Under the pieces are notes generated by a model. The model searched no databases and was not told where the DNA came from. It was given only the letters and a program-made list of their open reading frames with translations. The position numbers and the translations under genes are program-made. This document shows, piece after piece, positions 4,422 to 19,216 of a stretch of DNA of 23,641 bases. Positions within the stretch are counted from its first letter, which is position 1; each line of letters starts with the position of its first letter. Location of the stretch: the IMG/VR virus record IMGVR_UViG_3300023115_000100, positions 1 through 23,641 of that record; one strand, 5' to 3'. This stretch comes from a virus.

Positions 4422-4766
4422 ATGTCGGTCTACGTCAGAAATTTAACAATAAGTTCTCATTCTGATTTTTCAGAAAACTTTGAATTGTATCAGTTAGGTG
4501 GTCTACCTACAAATCTGTCTGGATACACAGTAGAGTCTCAAATGAGAAAGCATCCAGACAGTTCCACTGCCTATAACTTTACTGTAGGTATTACCAGTGC
4601 TGCTGATGGTAATTTGACCTTATCGATGACAGATAGCGATACTTCATTGATAAAACCTGGAAGATATGTATATGATGTAATGGCAACAAGACCTAATGGT
4701 GATAAATTAATTGTTCTAGAAGGAACTGTGAATGTGAGAGCAGGATTTTCTACTAACTGTCCATAA
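4422..4766 (+). CDS. Probable virion (tail or baseplate) protein, paralogue 1
   Basis: The 114-aa, mostly beta-strand protein has no cysteine clusters or enzyme motifs. Landmarks shared with the next gene are DF...F.L near the start, NLSGYT...QMR at about 31-42, FTV at about 53-55, GNLTLSMT at about 63-70, KPGRYVYDV at about 78-86 and LEGTVNV at about 99-105. The compact beta-sandwich look and the unit of two paralogues suggest a structural component such as a baseplate or fibre protein; the assignment is inferred. The stop overlaps the start of the next gene (TAATG). Confidence 0.7.
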   Translation: MSVYVRNLTISSHSDFSENFELYQLGGLPTNLSGYTVESQMRKHPDSSTAYNFTVGITSAADGNLTLSMTDSDTSLIKPGRYVYDVMATRPNGDKLIVLEGTVNVRAGFSTNCP

Positions 4767-5116
4767 TGTCACAACAACCAACATTTATCGTAAATCTGTT
4801 AATGTATACAGGTTGCGACTTTACTCAAACATTTGTATTAGAAGATACTCAGTCAAATTCACCAAAGAATCTGACTGGATACACTGCGTGTTGTAAAATG
4901 AGACGCTACGAAACTTCTAGTGAAGCGGGAACCTTTACAGTTGACTTTGGTAATGATAGAAGAGGAGGACGTTTAGAAATTATAATGACAAAAGCAAATA
5001 CTATTAACTTGAAAGCAGGAAAATATTTTTACGATGTCGTACTACAAGATCCTAACAACGAAAGGACAAGAGTCGTTGAAGGAACCATTTTAGTTAAGAG
5101 AGCAGTTACTCGTTAG
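4766..5116 (+). CDS. Probable virion (tail or baseplate) protein, paralogue 2
   Basis: The 116-aa protein is clearly related to its upstream neighbour: DFTQTFVL, NLTGYTACCKMR, FTVDF, GRLEIIMT, KAGKYFYDV and VEGTILV occur in the same order and spacing. It is a diverged tandem duplicate, translationally coupled to the first copy (TAATG). It has a local cysteine pair (ACCK) that the first copy lacks. It converges on the 852-aa minus-strand gene, and the two stop codons overlap (5113-5116) with no terminator between them. Confidence 0.7.
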   Translation: MSQQPTFIVNLLMYTGCDFTQTFVLEDTQSNSPKNLTGYTACCKMRRYETSSEAGTFTVDFGNDRRGGRLEIIMTKANTINLKAGKYFYDVVLQDPNNERTRVVEGTILVKRAVTR

Positions 5117-7671
5117 TTTTGCTTACTTACTGGTCTACCAGCATGTGATTTCTTCCACCAACCATAAGCATCCATGGTATTTGGATCGCTATTTGGATTT
5201 GGAATTATATCTTTAGTGGGATCATCTTCTACTTTTACCCCCTGCCCCTTTCCTTTCTCAGCATCAAGAATATTCTTTGTAGCAACTCCAAGACCTAATC
5301 CAAGTGTTCCAAGGGCAGCAATTTTACCTGCTGTTCCAAGAGGTTTTCTTGGTGGTTTTGGAATGTTTCTACCAGTTACTTGAGTTTTTGGTTTGCCAAA
5401 AACTCTCTTCATGAAACCAGTATTGAATAATCCACCTCTGGTCTGACTGCGAGTGATAGTAGTGGTTCCAGATCTGCCGAAAAGACCTTTTAACTTACCT
5501 GCTTGCCTTAATGCCCAAGGAGCAATTCTTGTTAGTGCTCCAATTCCCTCACAAACGGCATAGAGATCACTATCATAGCTAACACTCTCAGTAAGAGTCA
5601 GTGAAGAAATCACTTTCTCAGCAAGTTCTTCATCTTCAAGAGTCCAGAATTGAATAGTCTCATCAATAGTGTATCCACTCTTCAGCATAGCATCAGAGGT
5701 CTCAAGTACAAACTCTTCAAAAGTCTTCATTGAGAATGTATTTTTTCTTGGTTTTGGATTTGCTTTTTCCGCCTTTCTCTTAGCAACAATCTTATCATAC
5801 TGAGACTTAGTTACCAAATTCATTGCTGCTGGATTATCCACAACAACAGCAGTTCCTGCCTTATTCAATTTAAAAGAAGCAGTTTGCTGCTTATTTTTAA
5901 GATTATTCGCAGTGTTCTGAACCTGCTGTTGATTTACTCTAGGTCTTTGTGCTGGTGGTTTCATGGTCTTATTAAGGACCTTAGTAGCAAGTCCTCTAGC
6001 ACCTGCGTAACCAGCAATACCGCCAGCAATACCACCAAGAGCACCGCCTATCAGAGCCCCCTTAGGACCTAAGAAAGAACCAATCTTTGCTCCAAGTGCG
6101 AGACCTGCCTTAGCACCTGCCCATCCGCCAGCTGTTCCCGCACCGACCTGTGCGGCAGTTCTCTTAACTGACTGACGCTTAGAATATCCAGCGTCTCTAG
6201 CATCTTTGTAGGAAAGTCCAACATCTGCGATAGCAGCAGCAGGACCAGCAACACGACCAATACCACGGAGAGCACCTTTGACGCCCTTAACAGCAGGTGA
6301 AGATGGTTTATATGAGTAAGATCCTCTGCGACTGGTTGTAAATCCTGTTTGTGTACGCAAGTCACGAAAAGTCATTTTCTGACCTTGTGACTGAGGTTTG
6401 GTAGGTGATGGTTTTGCTGGTGGTTGAACGAAATTAGTTTGACTTGAAGTGACTCTAGCAGCACCTGTTGGTTTGGTAGGTGATGGTTTTGCTGGTGGTT
6501 GAACGAAATTAGTTTGACTTGAAGTGACTCTAGCAGCACCTGTTGGTTTTGAAGGTGCTTGAGTTGTTGGTGGAGTTCCTAAATTTAAAGTTTGTGAAGT
6601 TTTTGTCTTTGTCAGAGTGGCAGTTCCACCCTGAGAAGTACTAGGTTGTGTTGGAGTGCTACCGCTGCCACCACGACCACTACCAGTACCAGAACTTGGT
6701 TTGCTGCTAGATGGTGCTGTACCACCAGCAGACGGTGGTCTTTGAGCAGCAGGAGCATTGAACGCCCTTTTTAAAGCACGTCTTCTAGCATCCTCCAACG
6801 ACTTAAATGCCGCTTCACGTCTTGCAGTTTGTGGAACAATATCTTTATAACGACTAGTCATAGACTTATAAGTCTTTCTGACTTTGCTTCTTGCTGGTTT
6901 ATCACCAGCAGCTGCTCTACTCACAAGATCATCAACAGTCTTTGCTGATTGTCCTGGATTTTTTACACCACGTTTTGATGGATTATAATCAGCATCGCCA
7001 TATCCCCTAGTTACACTTCTAGTAGCATAAGTTTGAATACCTTTTGCTGTTGGTACTCCAGATTGTCCGATATAACCTCTTACACGACCTTTCTTAAAGG
7101 TTTTTAGTTGTGCTGCTGTAGGTGGTTTATTTACTGCTGCTCTTTTTCGCTCCAACTCTGCTCTGCGGGATTTTAAAGCTTTGGAAACTTCTGCTTGCTT
7201 AACTCCTTTTGGTTTCTCTACTGCTCTAGTCGCTTGGCGATATTTTTTTCCAGTTCCAGGTTCTGCACGTTTACCGACCATCGTTTCCTCTGGACCAGAA
7301 CTTTGTGCTGCTTGAAGTTCTGCAGATCCACCCTGATTTTTTAAAAGAGTGTCTTTAACTTGTTGTCTTTTTTCTTGCTCTTGTGCAGTTTTGATTGCTT
7401 TTTTAGAACTACCGAAATATACACCAGATTCTGGTTTACTTGATGTAGCAACAACTGATGGTTTTGTAGATTTGGCAGATTTCCAAAGACCTATAATCTC
7501 ATCAGAAGAAAGTGGTTTTCTTGCTGTATCAAGTCCTCTACGAATTCGTTGAGAAGAAAGTGATGATGTTTCTGGTCTAGCCTGACGCTGCAATTTCTTT
7601 TTGTCAGCATCAGATACAGGAAACGCTTCTTCTTTTATATTTTCAGTAATAAATTTCCTAAACGACTTCAT
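5113..7671 (-). CDS. Large basic modular protein with T4-type capsid-targeting N-terminus; probable packaged virion protein
   Basis: The 852-aa protein begins MKSFRKFITE, which fits the T4 internal-protein capsid-targeting sequence and its gp21 cleavage rule (I-x-E, cut after residue 10). Residues 11-310 are highly basic and probably disordered. Residues 310-430 are rich in P, S, T and G and contain an exact 25-residue tandem repeat. Residues 455-570 hold a glycine/alanine-rich hydrophobic stretch (for example GALIGGALGGIAGGIAGYAG at 538-557) that resembles a glycine zipper. Residue 648 starts a second targeting-like segment (MKTFEEFVLE), and 785-797 is another glycine-rich hydrophobic run. 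A late promoter lies 28 bases before the ATG. No enzymatic domain was seen. Packaging is inferred from the N-terminus, the promoter and the basic composition. Confidence 0.8.
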   Translation of the reverse strand: MKSFRKFITENIKEEAFPVSDADKKKLQRQARPETSSLSSQRIRRGLDTARKPLSSDEIIGLWKSAKSTKPSVVATSSKPESGVYFGSSKKAIKTAQEQEKRQQVKDTLLKNQGGSAELQAAQSSGPEETMVGKRAEPGTGKKYRQATRAVEKPKGVKQAEVSKALKSRRAELERKRAAVNKPPTAAQLKTFKKGRVRGYIGQSGVPTAKGIQTYATRSVTRGYGDADYNPSKRGVKNPGQSAKTVDDLVSRAAAGDKPARSKVRKTYKSMTSRYKDIVPQTARREAAFKSLEDARRRALKRAFNAPAAQRPPSAGGTAPSSSKPSSGTGSGRGGSGSTPTQPSTSQGGTATLTKTKTSQTLNLGTPPTTQAPSKPTGAARVTSSQTNFVQPPAKPSPTKPTGAARVTSSQTNFVQPPAKPSPTKPQSQGQKMTFRDLRTQTGFTTSRRGSYSYKPSSPAVKGVKGALRGIGRVAGPAAAIADVGLSYKDARDAGYSKRQSVKRTAAQVGAGTAGGWAGAKAGLALGAKIGSFLGPKGALIGGALGGIAGGIAGYAGARGLATKVLNKTMKPPAQRPRVNQQQVQNTANNLKNKQQTASFKLNKAGTAVVVDNPAAMNLVTKSQYDKIVAKRKAEKANPKPRKNTFSMKTFEEFVLETSDAMLKSGYTIDETIQFWTLEDEELAEKVISSLTLTESVSYDSDLYAVCEGIGALTRIAPWALRQAGKLKGLFGRSGTTTITRSQTRGGLFNTGFMKRVFGKPKTQVTGRNIPKPPRKPLGTAGKIAALGTLGLGLGVATKNILDAEKGKGQGVKVEDDPTKDIIPNPNSDPNTMDAYGWWKKSHAGRPVSKQN
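6395..6544 (-). repeat. Exact 75-bp tandem duplication within the 852-aa gene
   Basis: Two adjacent 75-base units (6395-6469 and 6470-6544) are identical, and the first five bases recur again at 6545-6549. Each unit encodes 25 residues of proline-rich linker containing TGAARVTSSQTNFVQPPAKP. Identity at every silent position shows that the duplication is recent or being homogenised. The length is a multiple of three, so the frame is kept. Confidence 0.95.
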
Positions 7672-7699: not shown

Positions 7700-7707
7700 T
7701 ATTTATA
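7700..7707 (-). promoter_or_regulatory. T4-type late promoter (TATAAATA)
   Basis: The minus strand reads TATAAATA 28 bases before the ATG of the 852-aa gene. This is the octamer recognised by the phage late sigma factor gp55 in T4-like phages. Its first bases come directly after the T-run of the terminator just upstream. Confidence 0.8.
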
Positions 7708-7734
7708 AAAAAAGAGAGGACCTCAGTCCTCTCT
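7707..7734 (-). terminator. Rho-independent terminator after the nrd transcription unit
   Basis: On the minus strand, AGAGAGGAC, a four-base loop (TGAG) and GTCCTCTCT form a perfect 9-bp stem followed directly by seven T residues. The stop codon of the 103-aa gene (7725-7723) lies inside the hairpin. It should end transcripts coming through gp61, nrdA and nrdB. Confidence 0.85.
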
Positions 7735-12854: not shown

Positions 12855-13055
12855 TTATGCCATCCAGCGTTTTCTAACACCAGGAAAACATCCTCTACCA
12901 ATAATAGTGGGTTCTCCTTTCTTTCTCTTTTTCTTTACAGGAGGATCATCACCTGCTTCAACAGTACCAGCAATCTGACCATGTGATATAGACATGGTTG
13001 GACCACCCTCCTCTTTGAGAGTTCTAACAATATCAATAATTCTATCGATGTCCAT
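12855..13055 (-). CDS. Small protein with basic C-terminus, unknown
   Basis: The 66-aa protein starts MDIDRIIDIVRTLKEEGGPT. A short amphipathic N-terminal helix leads to a region with AGTVEAGDDPP, then a lysine/arginine-rich tail (PVKKKRKKGEP, ending in RKRW). The ATG shares a base with the stop of the 123-aa gene (TAATG), showing coupling. No function was recognised; the basic tail could bind nucleic acid. Confidence 0.7.
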   Translation of the reverse strand: MDIDRIIDIVRTLKEEGGPTMSISHGQIAGTVEAGDDPPVKKKRKKGEPTIIGRGCFPGVRKRWMA

Positions 13056-13426
13056 TAGAGATTCTTTAACTCTTGTAAGCAAACTTCGTCTATTTCAATC
13101 TCATTTATTACTGTCTTAGGATACTCTGGTACCCTATTCAAGAAAACAAGAAAACTTTTTATTGCTGGCCAAAGGTCTTGCTCCAAGTTATAGAACAAAA
13201 GAGGAACAGCGGCATCATCAAATACATTGAAAAGAATGATAAGATGATTTAATATCAGATGAATCTTAAGTTCACCAGTATTCTTATATCTTTTCAACAA
13301 TCTTTTTATATAACGAATCCGTTTCAGATCAGACTCAAAGTCATCTCTGGTAACAGCTTGAGGATTGTTATAGAATTTTATAGCGAAGAGTAAGTAATTA
13401 CTCTCATTCAATTCGTCAAATCTCAT
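13055..13426 (-). CDS. Conserved-looking helical protein, unknown
   Basis: The 123-aa protein starts MRFDELNESNYLLFAIKFYNNPQ and appears wholly alpha-helical, with alternating basic (LKRIRYIKRLLKRYK) and hydrophobic (HLILNHLIILFNVF) segments and an acidic C-terminus. The hydrophobic stretches look amphipathic rather than transmembrane. It resembles small conserved proteins I associate with T4-like phages but cannot name. It lies downstream of the late-promoter gene and is coupled to the next gene. Confidence 0.7.
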   Translation of the reverse strand: MRFDELNESNYLLFAIKFYNNPQAVTRDDFESDLKRIRYIKRLLKRYKNTGELKIHLILNHLIILFNVFDDAAVPLLFYNLEQDLWPAIKSFLVFLNRVPEYPKTVINEIEIDEVCLQELKNL

Positions 13427-13440
13427 ACATCACTCAATTA

Positions 13441-13719
13441 TCATTCTGGGAATACTGCGTCGTCGTTTTGATCCAGACCAGTGATTCCGATTGCTACCAG
13501 AGTTTCTGACTTAACTCTAAGAGTTCCATGAACATCGACATAGGTTGTGATTCCAACCCATCCGCCATGAGTAACTGCATAGGCAGTTGTTGCTGCTAAT
13601 CCAACCTCAGTTTCATCGACACCATATACTGTGAAGTTGGAAGTATCCATCCCTTCATGATGTGCCGCGAACTTTGGCTCGTCACCAGATACATCTCCAG
13701 ATCCCCAAAGTGGTGCCAT
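13441..13719 (-). CDS. Small probable structural protein with its own late promoter
   Basis: The 92-aa protein starts MAPLWGSGDVSGDEPKF. It is glycine- and beta-rich, with YGVDETEVGLA (about 32-42) and HGGWVGITTYVD (about 51-62), and has no enzyme motif. A perfect TATAAATA late promoter lies 30 bases before the ATG, which implies late expression and hence a virion or assembly role. I cannot assign a position in the particle. Confidence 0.75.
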   Translation of the reverse strand: MAPLWGSGDVSGDEPKFAAHHEGMDTSNFTVYGVDETEVGLAATTAYAVTHGGWVGITTYVDVHGTLRVKSETLVAIGITGLDQNDDAVFPE

Positions 13720-13749: not shown

Positions 13750-13757
13750 TATTTATA
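13750..13757 (-). promoter_or_regulatory. T4-type late promoter (TATAAATA)
   Basis: The minus strand reads TATAAATA in the 50-base gap between the 66-aa and 92-aa genes, 30 bases before the ATG at 13719. Spacing is close to that of the late promoter upstream of the 852-aa gene. Confidence 0.75.
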
Positions 13758-14015: not shown

Positions 14016-15542
14016 TTAGACTCCCTTCAATCCACCAGGAAGTTGTGGACCCGTTCTCTTCAAAAATTCTTTTTCCGATCCCATTCCACGAATTGCCTTG
14101 TTATATATCCTTGCAGTTTTTTTTGCTTGATTGTGCTTATCATAATCAATTGGATCAGGCATTACACCTTCGCAAGTTGCTGCCAGTTTAGCATCAGAAG
14201 ATGTCATTGCCTTCATGGTTTTTTCTTCACCAGGCATCATATCCATAATCAATGGGTTCTTAATGCCCATTGCTCTTAACTTATTCTTGAGAAGTTCTCT
14301 ATAAGTTCTTCTTTCTTGTGGAGAACATTCCTTCTCTTCAGATTTCTTTTCTTCCTTGACAGATTCTTCTACCTTACCCTTTCCACCACAGTGTTCGCAG
14401 TCAGAACCACATCCACATCCACTTTCAGTAATTTTGTTTCCACAGCAGGAACATTCCTTGCCAATCTTGCTTTCTTCTACTTTCTTCTTCTCAGCAATCA
14501 TATCAAGAAGTTTAGAAGTGCTCTCACTAACACCTTCTTTCGTTCCATCCATTACTTTGACAACACCATTCTTGTAGTTGTCTACGTTTGTTCCGGTAAT
14601 TTTACCTCTATTTTGACCTTCAGTTGAAGTAGTTCCATCAACAAGGAACTCTTCGTTCATTTTTTTCTTCTTAGCAATCGCTGCGTTGATAGCATCACGA
14701 CGATTGTAGATATAAGAATCAGTCTTATCCTTCTTACCGTCGTCGTTTACATCACCATCTCTCTTGCTCTTAGCAACGGGTTTGTCAAGACCACCTTTGT
14801 TGGGAACTTCTTTCTTTTTGCCCTCATAAGGATCACCGTGCTCGGTCATCTCAACATCAAGACCCTTTGCTCTCAGTTCGGTGATTTTCTGGCGGTCAGC
14901 ATATCTGACATAAGAACGACCAGACTTTTTATCAGTAACTCTTACCTTATATTTCTTCTCCGAAGTCATATCTTCCTCAATGACTTCTTCCTTAATATTC
15001 TTCTCAACGAAGACTTGGAACATTGCCTTTGCGACGGCACTGCTGGCACCATCAGACATAGCATCATAATGTGCTACTTGCATTTCTTTATTCTTGTTCA
15101 CTTCCGCCTTCTTGATAAAAACTCCACCCCCAAGAGGTCCACCTTCTTTGGGTTTGCCAGTTTTGGGATCTGTATATACTTTGATTCCGGACTTTCCAGT
15201 CTTAGGATCTTCCCAAGGATTCAGAGTTCCTTGAACATTTGGGAAACCCTCTTTGACTTCTTTCTTCTCACCACCACCACCATCTTTGCCAAACAGTTTT
15301 GCTCTAACTGCTGCCTGCTCAGGAGCAGTAAGATTGCTGTTAGACATATACTGAGAATACGCTGCTCTTAGATCGATGCCCTCTCTTCTGGCACGATAGC
15401 GAATATCATAGACCGCCTGACGGATCTTCTTCTCAGAACCCTCACCTTCTACATTACCTTCACCTTTTGACGCAGCAGCAGGTGCCGCCTTCGCAGGGGC
15501 GAACTTGCGTGCTGGGAGTTCCTCAAATATCTTTTTAGTCAT
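14016..15542 (-). CDS. Modular probable virion protein with dockerin-like calcium loop and cysteine cluster
   Basis: The 508-aa protein is highly charged and lysine/glutamate-rich. An alanine-rich N-terminus (10-25) precedes a helical region (37-85), then a duplicated PKTGK motif (113-131). An EF-hand/dockerin-like loop, DGDVNDDGKKDKTD, lies at 262-275 with the D-x-N-x-D-G pattern. A cysteine cluster spans 364-385 (CSCCG, CGCG, CEHCG), probably zinc-binding, and the C-terminus is basic and helical. IFE at residues 5-7 fits the gp21 cleavage pattern weakly. A TATAAATA late promoter lies 38 bases before the ATG, supporting a virion or assembly role. The 15 bases before the ATG are the only spacer from the upstream gene. 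Confidence 0.75.
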   Translation of the reverse strand: MTKKIFEELPARKFAPAKAAPAAASKGEGNVEGEGSEKKIRQAVYDIRYRARREGIDLRAAYSQYMSNSNLTAPEQAAVRAKLFGKDGGGGEKKEVKEGFPNVQGTLNPWEDPKTGKSGIKVYTDPKTGKPKEGGPLGGGVFIKKAEVNKNKEMQVAHYDAMSDGASSAVAKAMFQVFVEKNIKEEVIEEDMTSEKKYKVRVTDKKSGRSYVRYADRQKITELRAKGLDVEMTEHGDPYEGKKKEVPNKGGLDKPVAKSKRDGDVNDDGKKDKTDSYIYNRRDAINAAIAKKKKMNEEFLVDGTTSTEGQNRGKITGTNVDNYKNGVVKVMDGTKEGVSESTSKLLDMIAEKKKVEESKIGKECSCCGNKITESGCGCGSDCEHCGGKGKVEESVKEEKKSEEKECSPQERRTYRELLKNKLRAMGIKNPLIMDMMPGEEKTMKAMTSSDAKLAATCEGVMPDPIDYDKHNQAKKTARIYNKAIRGMGSEKEFLKRTGPQLPGGLKGV

Positions 15543-15557
15543 CGGAAGATTCTACGA

Positions 15558-16895
15558 TTACGATTTCCTTATCTTATATTTATTTATAAATGCGATTCCG
15601 CTAGACATAGCGCCTGGAACCATTGATTCAACATACTTTCGGTGAGCATCAGTTCCAATTAAACGTTGATTTGCGGGGACACCAGAACGAGTAGTTCCAT
15701 TGACAACTGCTTCGGTTACATCCTTAATCCATGCCTTAAACATAATCTTATCCTCAGTAACACAGATAAGATGATTAGCACCTCTACGAACAATACGACC
15801 AACCAATCCAGTATTGAGATTCTCCACCAATTCACCAATACGGAAAATTGCTTTACTTACATAATTTTCACGAAGAGTATCTTGGTCAAACTTAGGTGCC
15901 ATCTCCCAGATACCCCACTCCTCGTTGATACCCATCGACATTCTTGTGGTATCAAAAAGTTGCTTTGCTTCTCTGCGAGGGAAACCCTCAGGCATAGCAG
16001 ACATAAAAGTTTTGAAATCGTTCTCGGAAGCAGCAAGTCTCAATCGAGACGCAGACATCCCTTCAACTCCATCAGCATCAGGGTCTCTATCACCAGCAGA
16101 AACGACCTCAACATTGTCGAACTGATACAGAGAACCATTATAGTTATTAGCAAGTTTATCAAACTCCTTTACTCTATCGGCACCACCAACAATTCTTACA
16201 TTGGTGTATCCATCATTATGTGCTTTCTTTAAAACGTCAAAAATAGTTCTAGTATTCTGATCATTCTGAATTCTTGAACTATGCTGGGGAAACATCCCTC
16301 TCATAAATGCTACCTTTGTATCAGCATCCAAAGGATTCTTTTTAGGATCATTTGAACGTGAAGGTACAATCATATAATCACTTCCGTCTGCTTCAGCAGC
16401 AGAGGCAGCAGTATCCATTAACTGTTGGTGACCAGCATGTGGAGGATTAAATCTACCAAAAGCAATGGTCAAAGTTCCTTTTGTTTTGGGCACAGGAGGT
16501 GGACCTGCTTTTAAATCTGGACTCTGAAGTTGAGACTGAACAGCATCCGCTTGTACTGCCTGTTGTTCTATCTCCTTTTCAGCAGCAACAGCATCCATCT
16601 CATCTGCTTGTGCTCTCAGTTCATCAGACGATGGTTCGGATGCGGGTTCTTGTTGCTTAAGTGATGGATCTGTAAAGTTTGGATCTGAGATATTCTTTTC
16701 CAGTTCAGTTTGGTCAGGATCTCCCTTACCAACTTGCTGTCTCTTATTATAAAACTTTAATCTTCCCTTTTCTGTTTTGGCGACAAACTCTTTGGTGGTT
16801 CTATCATACCATCCACCATGCCCGTCTCCTTCAAGACCAAGACGTGCTGCCTGCTGCGCTGCAGATTCACTAAGAAATTGGAAAAAACTTTTCAT
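15558..16895 (-). CDS. HxGH nucleotidyltransferase with T4-type capsid-targeting N-terminus
   Basis: The 445-aa protein begins MKSFFQFLSE, matching the T4 capsid-targeting layout with a gp21-type site (L-S-E) after residue 10. Residues 55-135 are a P/Q/E-rich linker. The catalytic domain has GRFNPPHAGH (147-156, the HxGH signature), IVGGAD (235-240) and GMSASRLR (279-286, equivalent to the ISSTxxR motif). This places it in the nicotinamide-nucleotide adenylyltransferase/cytidylyltransferase superfamily; the substrate cannot be told. Residues 350-400 (GELVENLNTGLVGRIVRRG and on) look like a small SH3/KOW-like beta domain. The ATG overlaps the 71-aa gene stop (ATGA). Packaging in the head is inferred. 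Confidence 0.85.
   Translation of the reverse strand: MKSFFQFLSESAAQQAARLGLEGDGHGGWYDRTTKEFVAKTEKGRLKFYNKRQQVGKGDPDQTELEKNISDPNFTDPSLKQQEPASEPSSDELRAQADEMDAVAAEKEIEQQAVQADAVQSQLQSPDLKAGPPPVPKTKGTLTIAFGRFNPPHAGHQQLMDTAASAAEADGSDYMIVPSRSNDPKKNPLDADTKVAFMRGMFPQHSSRIQNDQNTRTIFDVLKKAHNDGYTNVRIVGGADRVKEFDKLANNYNGSLYQFDNVEVVSAGDRDPDADGVEGMSASRLRLAASENDFKTFMSAMPEGFPRREAKQLFDTTRMSMGINEEWGIWEMAPKFDQDTLRENYVSKAIFRIGELVENLNTGLVGRIVRRGANHLICVTEDKIMFKAWIKDVTEAVVNGTTRSGVPANQRLIGTDAHRKYVESMVPGAMSSGIAFINKYKIRKS
15581..15588 (-). promoter_or_regulatory. T4-type late promoter inside the 3' end of the nucleotidyltransferase gene
   Basis: The minus strand reads TATAAATA 38 bases before the ATG of the 508-aa gene, within the last codons of the upstream gene. 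It would let the 508-aa gene be expressed late, independently of read-through. Confidence 0.75.
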
Positions 16896-18809: not shown

Positions 18810-19216
18810 AGGTCTCCCTCAGCACGATTCTCAGAATAGTATACATCAAAACTACCACCTGGGTAACGCTTCTCCAGTTTCTGAACGTTGCGAGCAATCA
18901 CATCGTCGAAGGAAACACCGAGTGCCATGCAGGCTTGAGCAACGTACCACATAAGATCACCGAGTTCAATAATAAGATGCTCACGGTTATGGTCGTCCCA
19001 AGGTTTTCCTTGGAAAACCATCTTCTTGATGATTTCAAGGAACTCCCCACCTTCAGCATTAATACCAACACCCGCAGTAAGTAGTCGCTCAATATTGGCA
19101 CCCTTCTCATCAAGGGTAACAAGGCGGTCGGAAAGTGCGACAAAATCAGTAGAGGCATCGCTAGTAACCGCATCAACAAATTTTTGATAGCGTTCAAAAT
19201 CAACTTGCTTAGTCAT
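18806..19216 (-). CDS. MazG-like NTP pyrophosphohydrolase
   Basis: The 136-aa all-alpha NTP-pyrophosphatase has the diagnostic metal-binding pattern: E55-x-x-E58 in AEGGEFLE and E84-x-x-D87 in IIELGDLMWY, 25 residues apart. These enzymes hydrolyse (d)NTPs to (d)NMPs plus pyrophosphate. In cyanophages MazG-type enzymes have been linked to recycling of nucleotides from degraded host DNA; the substrate here is not known. The ATG shares a base with the gp41 stop (TAATG), placing it in the replication operon. The C-terminal KRYPGGSFD is another family-like feature. Confidence 0.88.
   Translation of the reverse strand: MTKQVDFERYQKFVDAVTSDASTDFVALSDRLVTLDEKGANIERLLTAGVGINAEGGEFLEIIKKMVFQGKPWDDHNREHLIIELGDLMWYVAQACMALGVSFDDVIARNVQKLEKRYPGGSFDVYYSENRAEGDL

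What the first reader, a model, noticed from the sequence alone, without database searches (positions are those of the whole stretch)
7642..7671. 852-aa protein starts with a T4-type capsid-targeting sequence
Residues 1-10 read MKSFRKFITE. T4 internal proteins IPI-III begin MKTYQEFIAE, a ten-residue capsid-targeting signal removed by prohead protease gp21 after L/I-x-E. M1, K2, F7, I8 and E10 coincide and the length to the cut is identical. With the late promoter and basic composition, this predicts a protein packaged in the cyanophage head, processed to start at N11, and possibly injected with the DNA. The match is seen; the T4 rule is established; function in this phage is inferred.
Basis: partly seen in the sequence, partly recalled or inferred. 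Interest (0 to 1): 0.85.

Follow-up and report, generated by a model that had tools for sequence, protein, structure and literature searches.

The report
Virus protein with capsid address tag
A large protein of a virus that infects cyanobacteria starts with nearly the same ten-residue address label that phage T4 uses to load proteins into its head, and the same label sits on unrelated enzymes already found in purified cyanophage particles, so it probably marks what these viruses carry into their hosts.

Summary
The 852-aa ORF (5113-7671, minus) begins MKSFRKFITE behind a late-promoter-like TATAAATA. One correction: in T4 only IPII and IPIII start MKTYQEFIAE; IPI starts MKTFKEFTST.

The T4-derived motif M-x-x-[FYLW]-x-x-F-[ILVMF]-x-E occurs at 23 of 4772 first ATGs and 0 of 6257 inner ATGs in ten phage genomes. 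In S-CREM2 all five motif genes are among the 52 proteins detected by mass spectrometry in virions, including the SAM hydrolase, kinase and cytidylyltransferase that its authors could not place. The S-CRM01 kinase reported from virions has it too. In environmental contigs an MKSFxxF[LF]xE tag heads 107 proteins in 35 unrelated clusters, and conservation collapses right after E10.

So a T4-type capsid-targeting sequence most likely works in T4-like cyanophages, and this protein is probably head cargo. Not shown: that this protein is in virions, is cut after E10, or is injected. One of four full-length family members has a weaker tag (MKSYKDLFNE). A second tag-like segment (MKTFEEFVLE, residues 648-657) lies inside the protein and is not a second start.

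The parts
7642..7671 (-). Capsid-targeting-like sequence, residues 1-10 MKSFRKFITE; predicted prohead-protease cut after E10
   Evidence: cleavage is inference
5113..7671 (-). 852-aa basic protein, predicted head cargo; family of four full-length members (window, L005, L268, L269), and P-SSM2 PSSM2_211 at the same gene position, 20% identical
7700..7707 (-). T4-type late promoter element TATAAATA, 35 nt upstream of the start
   Evidence: at -34/-35 in 4 of 4 family members
7713..7734 (-). Intrinsic-terminator-like hairpin of the preceding gene, directly before the late promoter
5701..5730 (-). Internal tag-like segment, residues 648-657 MKTFEEFVLE (SPLEEYILE in L268 and L269)
5548..5667 (-). 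Stretch with four further [LIV]-x-E sites (ending at E671, E685, E695, E708), at the same places in 4 of 4 family members; possible protease-sensitive linker
   Evidence: cleavage not tested
5965..6180 (-). Gly/Ala-rich segment, residues 498-569, well conserved in the family; predicted helical at very low confidence
16866..16895 (-). Second tag in the window: residues 1-10 MKSFFQFLSE of the cytidyltransferase
15558..16895 (-). Cytidyltransferase/NMNAT-like enzyme (T4-GC190 family); relatives are MS-detected virion proteins in S-SM1, S-SCSM1, S-CREM2 and S-SZBM1
16731..16853 (-). 'GLxxDGHGxW' module, about residues 15-55 of the cytidyltransferase, shared with other tagged enzymes

Best explanation
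The first ten residues of the 852-aa protein are a T4-type capsid-targeting sequence. The gene is transcribed late. The decapeptide, probably a short amphipathic helix carrying F4, F7 and I8, binds the prohead scaffold core, so the protein is enclosed in the head before DNA packaging. The phage's gp21-type prohead protease then cuts after E10 (I-T-E|N), frees the basic body from the core, and the body stays in the head with the DNA, from where it may enter the host. Shown here: the tag, its position, the late promoter, the tag's restriction to gene starts, its presence on unrelated proteins, and its link with MS-detected virion proteins in related phages. Inferred: packaging and cleavage of this protein. 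Conjecture: injection and its task in the cell.
For: S-CREM2: 5 of 5 motif genes encode proteins of the 52-member virion proteome: SAM hydrolase MKDFDSFLEE, kinase MKRFDAFLTE, cytidylyltransferase MKNFSSFLTE, ORF13 MKDLHSFLTE, ORF136 MQTFSMFFSE (hypergeometric P 0.0006). Pooled with S-SZBM1 and S-SCSM1: 7 of 9, expected 1.8, P 0.0003. S-CRM01's virion kinase (virion detection per PMC10665884 passage) starts MISFDQFLSE. Non-T4-like S-CBWM1: 0 of 443 first ATGs. Tag at 23 of 4772 first versus 0 of 6257 inner ATGs. Viral contigs: 99 of 121 pattern matches at the first ATG of an ORF, against 6 of 50 for the reversed pattern; 35 unrelated clusters behind the tag; unselected positions 5 and 6 prefer K and E/Q, as in T4; conservation falls from 4.2 to 0.7 bits between positions 10 and 11. 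Tag kept as MKSFxxFITE in 3 of 4 family members, MKSLSQFIIE in PSSM2_211. T4 gp23 cut column L-x-E in 7 of 7 cyanophage capsid proteins.
Against: No virion data were found for this protein or its family; the window is a 23.6-kb fragment without head genes. L268, one of four family members, has MKSYKDLFNE, which breaks the F7 and [LI]-x-E features. Two tagged small proteins, SSZBM1_191 and SSCSM1_30, are not in their virion lists. The relaxed motif also fits the window's UvsX. Tagged T4 gp61.1 and the S-CRM01 acetyltransferase have no virion evidence here.
Confidence: 0.78

Rival explanations
1. The decapeptide targets the protein to the head but is not removed, or is removed only in some relatives; it acts purely as a scaffold-binding helix.
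For: L268 has FNE in place of [LI]-x-E and the internal site of the window is VLE, not a canonical T4 site. No semi-tryptic peptide data were available.
Against: Conservation of the tag ends right after E10. The cyanophage gp23 cut site follows the T4 rule in 7 of 7.
Confidence: 0.15
2. The 852-aa protein is a tail- or fibre-associated protein, and the N-terminal match has another meaning: it lies beside L-shaped tail-fibre assembly genes and its Gly-rich part resembles a tail-associated PHROG family.
For: Neighbouring ORFs 4422-4766 and 4766-5116 match phrog_3304/1084 (L-shaped tail fibre assembly); phrog_1047 (tail-associated lysin) hits residues 323-604 weakly.
Against: Those neighbours are on the opposite strand. 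The PHROG hits centre on a low-complexity Gly/Ala-rich stretch. None of the recognised tail proteins in the three virion proteomes has the tag.
Confidence: 0.1
3. Two proteins are made from this ORF: the full chain and a 205-aa chain starting at Met648 with its own tag.
For: Met648 starts MKTFEEFVLE, itself a motif match, identical in L005.
Against: L268 and L269 have no Met there (SPLEEYILE), and no Shine-Dalgarno-like sequence precedes the codon in window or L005.
Confidence: 0.05
4. Chance resemblance or a generic hydrophobic N-terminal helix of phage proteins with no targeting role.
For: Only 5 of 10 residues equal T4's; the relaxed motif also fits UvsX.
Against: 0 of 6257 inner ATGs and 0 of 998 permuted motifs reaching the count; 5 of 5 tagged S-CREM2 genes are virion proteins.
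Confidence: 0.05

Closest known systems
T4 internal proteins IPII, IPIII (CTS MKTYQEFIAE) and IPI (MKTFKEFTST)
   Same: N-terminal tag with K2, F7, I/L8, E10; unrelated mature parts behind one tag (T4 sequences read; CTS role from passages of PMC9026906)
   Different: T4 internal proteins are 95-193 aa; this one is 852 aa, has a second tag-like segment inside, and has not been measured in a virion
Cyanophage virion-associated enzymes: cytidylyltransferase/NMNAT (T4-GC190), APH/ChoK-like kinase, SAM hydrolase, Cas9-like ORF12 of S-CREM2
   Same: Carry the tag at (or, for ORF12, near) the N-terminus and are detected in purified virions
   Different: They are recognisable or named enzymes; the 852-aa protein has no Pfam domain
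P-SSM2 PSSM2_211 (T4-GC 206)
   Same: Same gene position after nrdB and before tail-fibre assembly genes, starts MKSLSQFIIE, similar Gly-rich block
   Different: 573 aa, 20% identity, lacks the C-terminal 205-aa part; PSSM2_212 is not a detectable homologue of that part
Giant-phage head propeptides (SPN3US, phiKZ) cut at A-x-E / S-x-E
   Same: Propeptide-directed loading of head interior proteins with cutting after Glu (passages of PMC5694885)
   Different: Propeptides there are mostly much longer, several over 100 residues; no MKSFxxFIxE-like sequence in the passages read

Membership tests
T4-type capsid-targeting sequence (CTS) | Sequence at the extreme N-terminus with the targeting residues (positions 4 and 7) and processing residues (8 and 10) | tested here: met
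   MKSFRKFITE: F4, F7, I8, E10; roles of positions 4, 7, 8, 10 from PMC9026906 passage
T4-type capsid-targeting sequence (CTS) | Same tag on proteins with unrelated mature parts | tested here: met
   35 BLAST-unrelated clusters among 107 tagged contig proteins; in this phage also the cytidyltransferase
T4-type capsid-targeting sequence (CTS) | Tagged proteins are in the virion | tested here: inconclusive
   Met for related phages: 5 of 5 S-CREM2, 7 of 9 over three proteomes. No data for the 852-aa protein itself
T4-type capsid-targeting sequence (CTS) | Removal by gp21 after [LI]-x-E | not testable with these tools
   ITE10 fits the rule; cyanophage gp23 site fits; no peptide data
T4-type capsid-targeting sequence (CTS) | Tag is sufficient to carry a foreign protein into the head | not testable with these tools
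   needs a fusion experiment
T4-type capsid-targeting sequence (CTS) | Conserved in relatives of the protein | tested here: inconclusive
   3 of 4 family members keep MKSFxxFITE; L268 has MKSYKDLFNE
T4 internal protein (IP)-like head cargo | Late expression | tested here: met
   TATAAATA at -34/-35 in 4 of 4; promoter match only, no transcript data
T4 internal protein (IP)-like head cargo | Basic protein | tested here: met
   pI 10.5
T4 internal protein (IP)-like head cargo | Ejected into the host with DNA | not testable with these tools
   no evidence either way
Tail-fibre assembly / tail-associated protein | Profile match to a tail family outside low-complexity sequence | tested here: not met
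   only one weak tail-family hit, over the Gly/Ala-rich part; no Pfam match

The most novel reading that the evidence does not exclude
The decapeptide is a general address label of T4-like environmental myoviruses, above all those of cyanobacteria: genes for a varied payload (SAM-degrading enzyme, kinases, NMNAT-like transferases, Cas9-like protein, zeta-toxin-like kinases, lysozymes, a poly-A-polymerase-like enzyme, giant basic proteins such as this one) carry it, are loaded into the head and delivered with the DNA, so that the injected payload of a phage can be read from its protein N-termini. Part of the payload shares a second, 'GHG' module just behind the tag.
Probability: 0.65. Interest if true: 0.85.

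Novelty: new variant of a known kind. Interest (0 to 1): 0.75.

Why it matters
Cyanophage virion proteomes repeatedly contain metabolic and regulatory enzymes, and their authors left open whether these are packaged or were not separated from virions (PMC10665884 and PMC9602691, passages). A T4-type tag on these enzymes gives a simple mechanism and a testable rule: read the first ten residues and predict the head cargo. It would turn many 'hypothetical' marine-phage genes into candidate injected effectors, and offer an address label for loading chosen proteins into cyanophage heads.

Tried and rejected
Internal start at Met648: rejected, as two of four family members lack the Met and no Shine-Dalgarno-like sequence precedes it. 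Depletion of [LI]-x-E sites in the basic body: 0 found, 1.2 expected, not significant, so not used. Fusion of PSSM2_211 and PSSM2_212: no detectable similarity of the C-terminal part to PSSM2_212 (E 0.20). Homology of T4 gp61.1 with P-SSM2 PSSM2_205: only the tag KTFK[EQ]F aligns. Structure: the AlphaFold model has mean pLDDT 37, pTM 0.23, so no fold search was made. tblastn of the 852-aa protein in the phage collection: no match. S-SKS1 SWZG_00082, at the same gene position, starts MKSLSQSDYG and does not carry the full tag. Late promoters upstream of tagged contig genes: 25 of 99 against 145 of 1004 other ORFs, p 0.008, a modest effect with a noisy background, not relied on.

Rows dropped before counts: for the 7-of-9 count I left out an unannotated 87-aa S-SZBM1 ORF (87557-87820) that overlaps the annotated recombinase gene. 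For S-SCSM1 I used 48 records flagged 'virion protein' in GenBank, while the paper says 45 were detected. For clustering I used 107 of 121 matches (length at least 60 aa, upstream stop within 40 codons, at most one earlier ATG). Pfam was run on 18 of the 35 cluster representatives plus two further members. Relaxed-motif hits at late or non-ATG starts in P-SSM2, S-SM1 and Syn9 were taken as background and not followed. S-TIM5 is counted among the eight cyanophages although its record is classed outside Kyanoviridae; its T4-likeness was not tested here.

Full report
What is there. The window is a 23,641-base viral record, a fragment of a T4-like cyanophage: its genes run from DNA polymerase through uvsX, helicase, cytidyltransferase, primase and nrdA/nrdB, and its nearest annotated DNA relatives are S-SKS1, S-SRM01 and P-SSM2. 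The 852-aa ORF lies at 5113-7671 on the minus strand and begins MKSFRKFITE-NIKEE. TATAAATA lies at 7700-7707 (minus), just after a terminator-like hairpin. The protein is very basic, pI 10.5, and has no Pfam match. PHROG hits fall mainly on a Gly/Ala-rich stretch and are of unknown function or weak.

Correction to the finding. The T4 record shows that only IPII and IPIII begin MKTYQEFIAE; IPI begins MKTFKEFTST.

Family. Three further full-length members were found in viral contigs: L005 (975 aa), L268 (975 aa) and L269 (986 aa), with the same flanking genes as far as the contigs reach (nrdB side, opposite-strand L-shaped-fibre assembly genes, GIY-YIG-type endonuclease ORF). Their identity to the window protein is 50-53%. 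N-termini: MKSFKNFITE in L005 and L269, MKSYKDLFNE in L268. TATAAATA lies at -34 or -35 in 4 of 4. P-SSM2 has PSSM2_211 at the same place, starting MKSLSQFIIE, 20% identical. Two near-identical copies of the window protein (L002, L003) and a partial one (L004) were also found.

Is the motif special? I took a motif from the T4 mutagenesis summary (targeting residues 4 and 7, processing residues 8 and 10; passage of PMC9026906): M-x-x-[FYLW]-x-x-F-[ILVMF]-x-E. In ten phage genomes (eight cyanophages taken as T4-like, T4, and the non-T4-like S-CBWM1) it occurs at 23 of 4772 first-in-ORF ATGs and at 0 of 6257 inner ATGs. Among the eight, 20 of 3920 first ATGs carry it; 998 column permutations average 0.65 and none reaches 20, though near-equivalent permutations that only swap the hydrophobic classes reach 14-17. 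S-CBWM1 has 0 of 443. In T4 it picks ipII, ipIII and the uncharacterised gp61.1.

Does it mark virion proteins? S-CREM2 has 52 proteins in its virion proteome (Table 3 of PMC10665884, section read) among about 219 genes. The scan finds five motif genes, and all five are in that list: ORF6 SAM hydrolase, ORF13, ORF14 kinase, ORF136, ORF154 cytidylyltransferase. P is 0.0006. Another non-structural virion protein, ORF12 (Cas9-like), has a tag-like LRFASFMAE at residues 17-25 behind a short extension. S-SZBM1 (30 proteins, Table 1 of PMC9146016): the cytidylyltransferase MRFRQFIIE, one residue shorter, is detected; SSZBM1_191 is not. S-SCSM1: the NMNAT MKSFLQFLKE is flagged as virion protein; SSCSM1_30 is not. 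In all 7 of 9, expected 1.8, P 0.0003. S-SM1's cytidyltransferase MKKFSAFLNE belongs to T4-GC190, detected in S-SM1 virions (passages of PMC3037559). As a check made after the rule was set, S-CRM01's kinase, reported from virions (PMC10665884 passage; the original paper was not seen), starts MISFDQFLSE.

Is it a transferable tag? The reversed pattern gave 50 matches in the whole collection, 6 of them at ORF starts (Fisher p 6e-18). The 107 usable proteins fall into 35 clusters with no BLAST similarity to each other beyond the tag. Pfam matches above the curated cut-off include cytidylyltransferase, zeta-toxin-like kinase, phage lysozyme, class I chitinase, poly-A polymerase head domain, DnaJ and DUF6267. 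Over one representative per cluster, the unselected positions 5 and 6 prefer K (20 of 35) and E/Q (21 of 35), as in T4, and the information falls from 4.15 bits at position 10 to 0.66 at position 11 and 0.2-0.6 beyond; position 10 was part of the selected pattern, so the telling points are positions 5-6 and the absence of any signal after 10. That is the profile of a ten-residue removable tag. Which of these contigs are T4-like was not tested.

Is the cutting rule likely the same? In an alignment of eight major capsid proteins, T4's L-T-E65, the gp23 maturation site (its position is recalled), aligns with L-[TAS]-E in 7 of 7 cyanophages. No cleavage data for tagged cyanophage proteins were available.

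The internal copy. Residues 648-657 read MKTFEEFVLE, identical in L005; L268 and L269 have SPLEEYILE in the same place. No Shine-Dalgarno-like sequence precedes Met648. I read this as an internal tag-like or cut site, followed by four more [LIV]-x-E sites at the same positions in all four proteins, and not as a second start.

A second shared module. A roughly 38-residue 'GLxxDGHGxWxDxxTxxxVAxTxxGxL' block lies just behind the tag of several cytidyltransferases. A profile of it finds, in 8917 six-frame ORFs of seven genomes, the window and part of S-SKS1, six cytidyltransferases (two of them weakly), and in S-CREM2 the virion kinase (two copies) and the virion Cas9-like protein; in S-CRM01 it finds g128 and, weakly, the virion kinase. 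The S-CREM2 and S-SZBM1 cytidylyltransferases lack it.

What is in print. Searches for 'capsid targeting sequence' with 'cyanophage', 'cyanophage' with 'capsid-targeting' and 'capsid targeting' with 'Synechococcus' gave at most one paper each. In the hit the only cyanophage mention is in the reference list. I did not look up the single Synechococcus mention in PMC5694885. The S-CREM2 paper's main text does not contain 'targeting' or 'N-terminal'. The held library lacks most subscription journals, so priority cannot be claimed.

Limits. The 852-aa protein has not been seen in a virion; its cutting and injection are inference; one of four family members has a weaker tag; the relaxed motif also fits the window's UvsX; the predicted structure is unusable (mean pLDDT 37).

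Noticed in passing
window 16731-16853 (minus); S-CREM2 ORF12 and ORF14; S-CRM01 g128 and kinase: A 'GHG' module behind the tag is shared by otherwise unrelated virion enzymes (cytidyltransferase, kinase, Cas9-like): a possible second packaging or ejection element.
   Followed up: partly
T4 18966-19130 (gene 61.1), L017: T4 gp61.1 (54 aa) begins MKTFKEFIKE, a strict tag match; it may be an unrecognised T4 internal protein. No virion evidence was found in the one paper checked.
   Followed up: partly
S-CREM2 ORF12 and S-CRM01 g128: Both start with a similar 16-17 residue extension (MTSRWSNWSTG.., MRQSRWAKWSRG..) before the tag-like segment.
   Followed up: no
L104, L121, L189 and similar; SSZBM1_191; SSCSM1_30: A widespread tagged protein of about 105 aa (MKSFKQFLSESVNIxGDFNGNLY) makes up 20 of 107 tagged contig proteins but is not in the two virion lists checked.
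   Followed up: partly
window 13441-13719 (minus), TATAAATA at 13750-13757: Small late-promoter gene with weak similarity to a head-protein PHROG (phrog_613, E 1.5e-9).
   Followed up: no
window 14016-15542 (minus), TATAAATA at 15581-15588: Late-promoter gene with an internal tag-like segment MFQVFVEKNIKEE; P-SSM2 PSSM2_195 is its positional counterpart.
   Followed up: no
window 12855-13082 (minus): Short protein with IAGTVEAGDDPPVKKKRKK, sharing phrog_3286 with the C-terminus of P-SSM2 PSSM2_205, which starts VKTFKQFQEA.
   Followed up: partly
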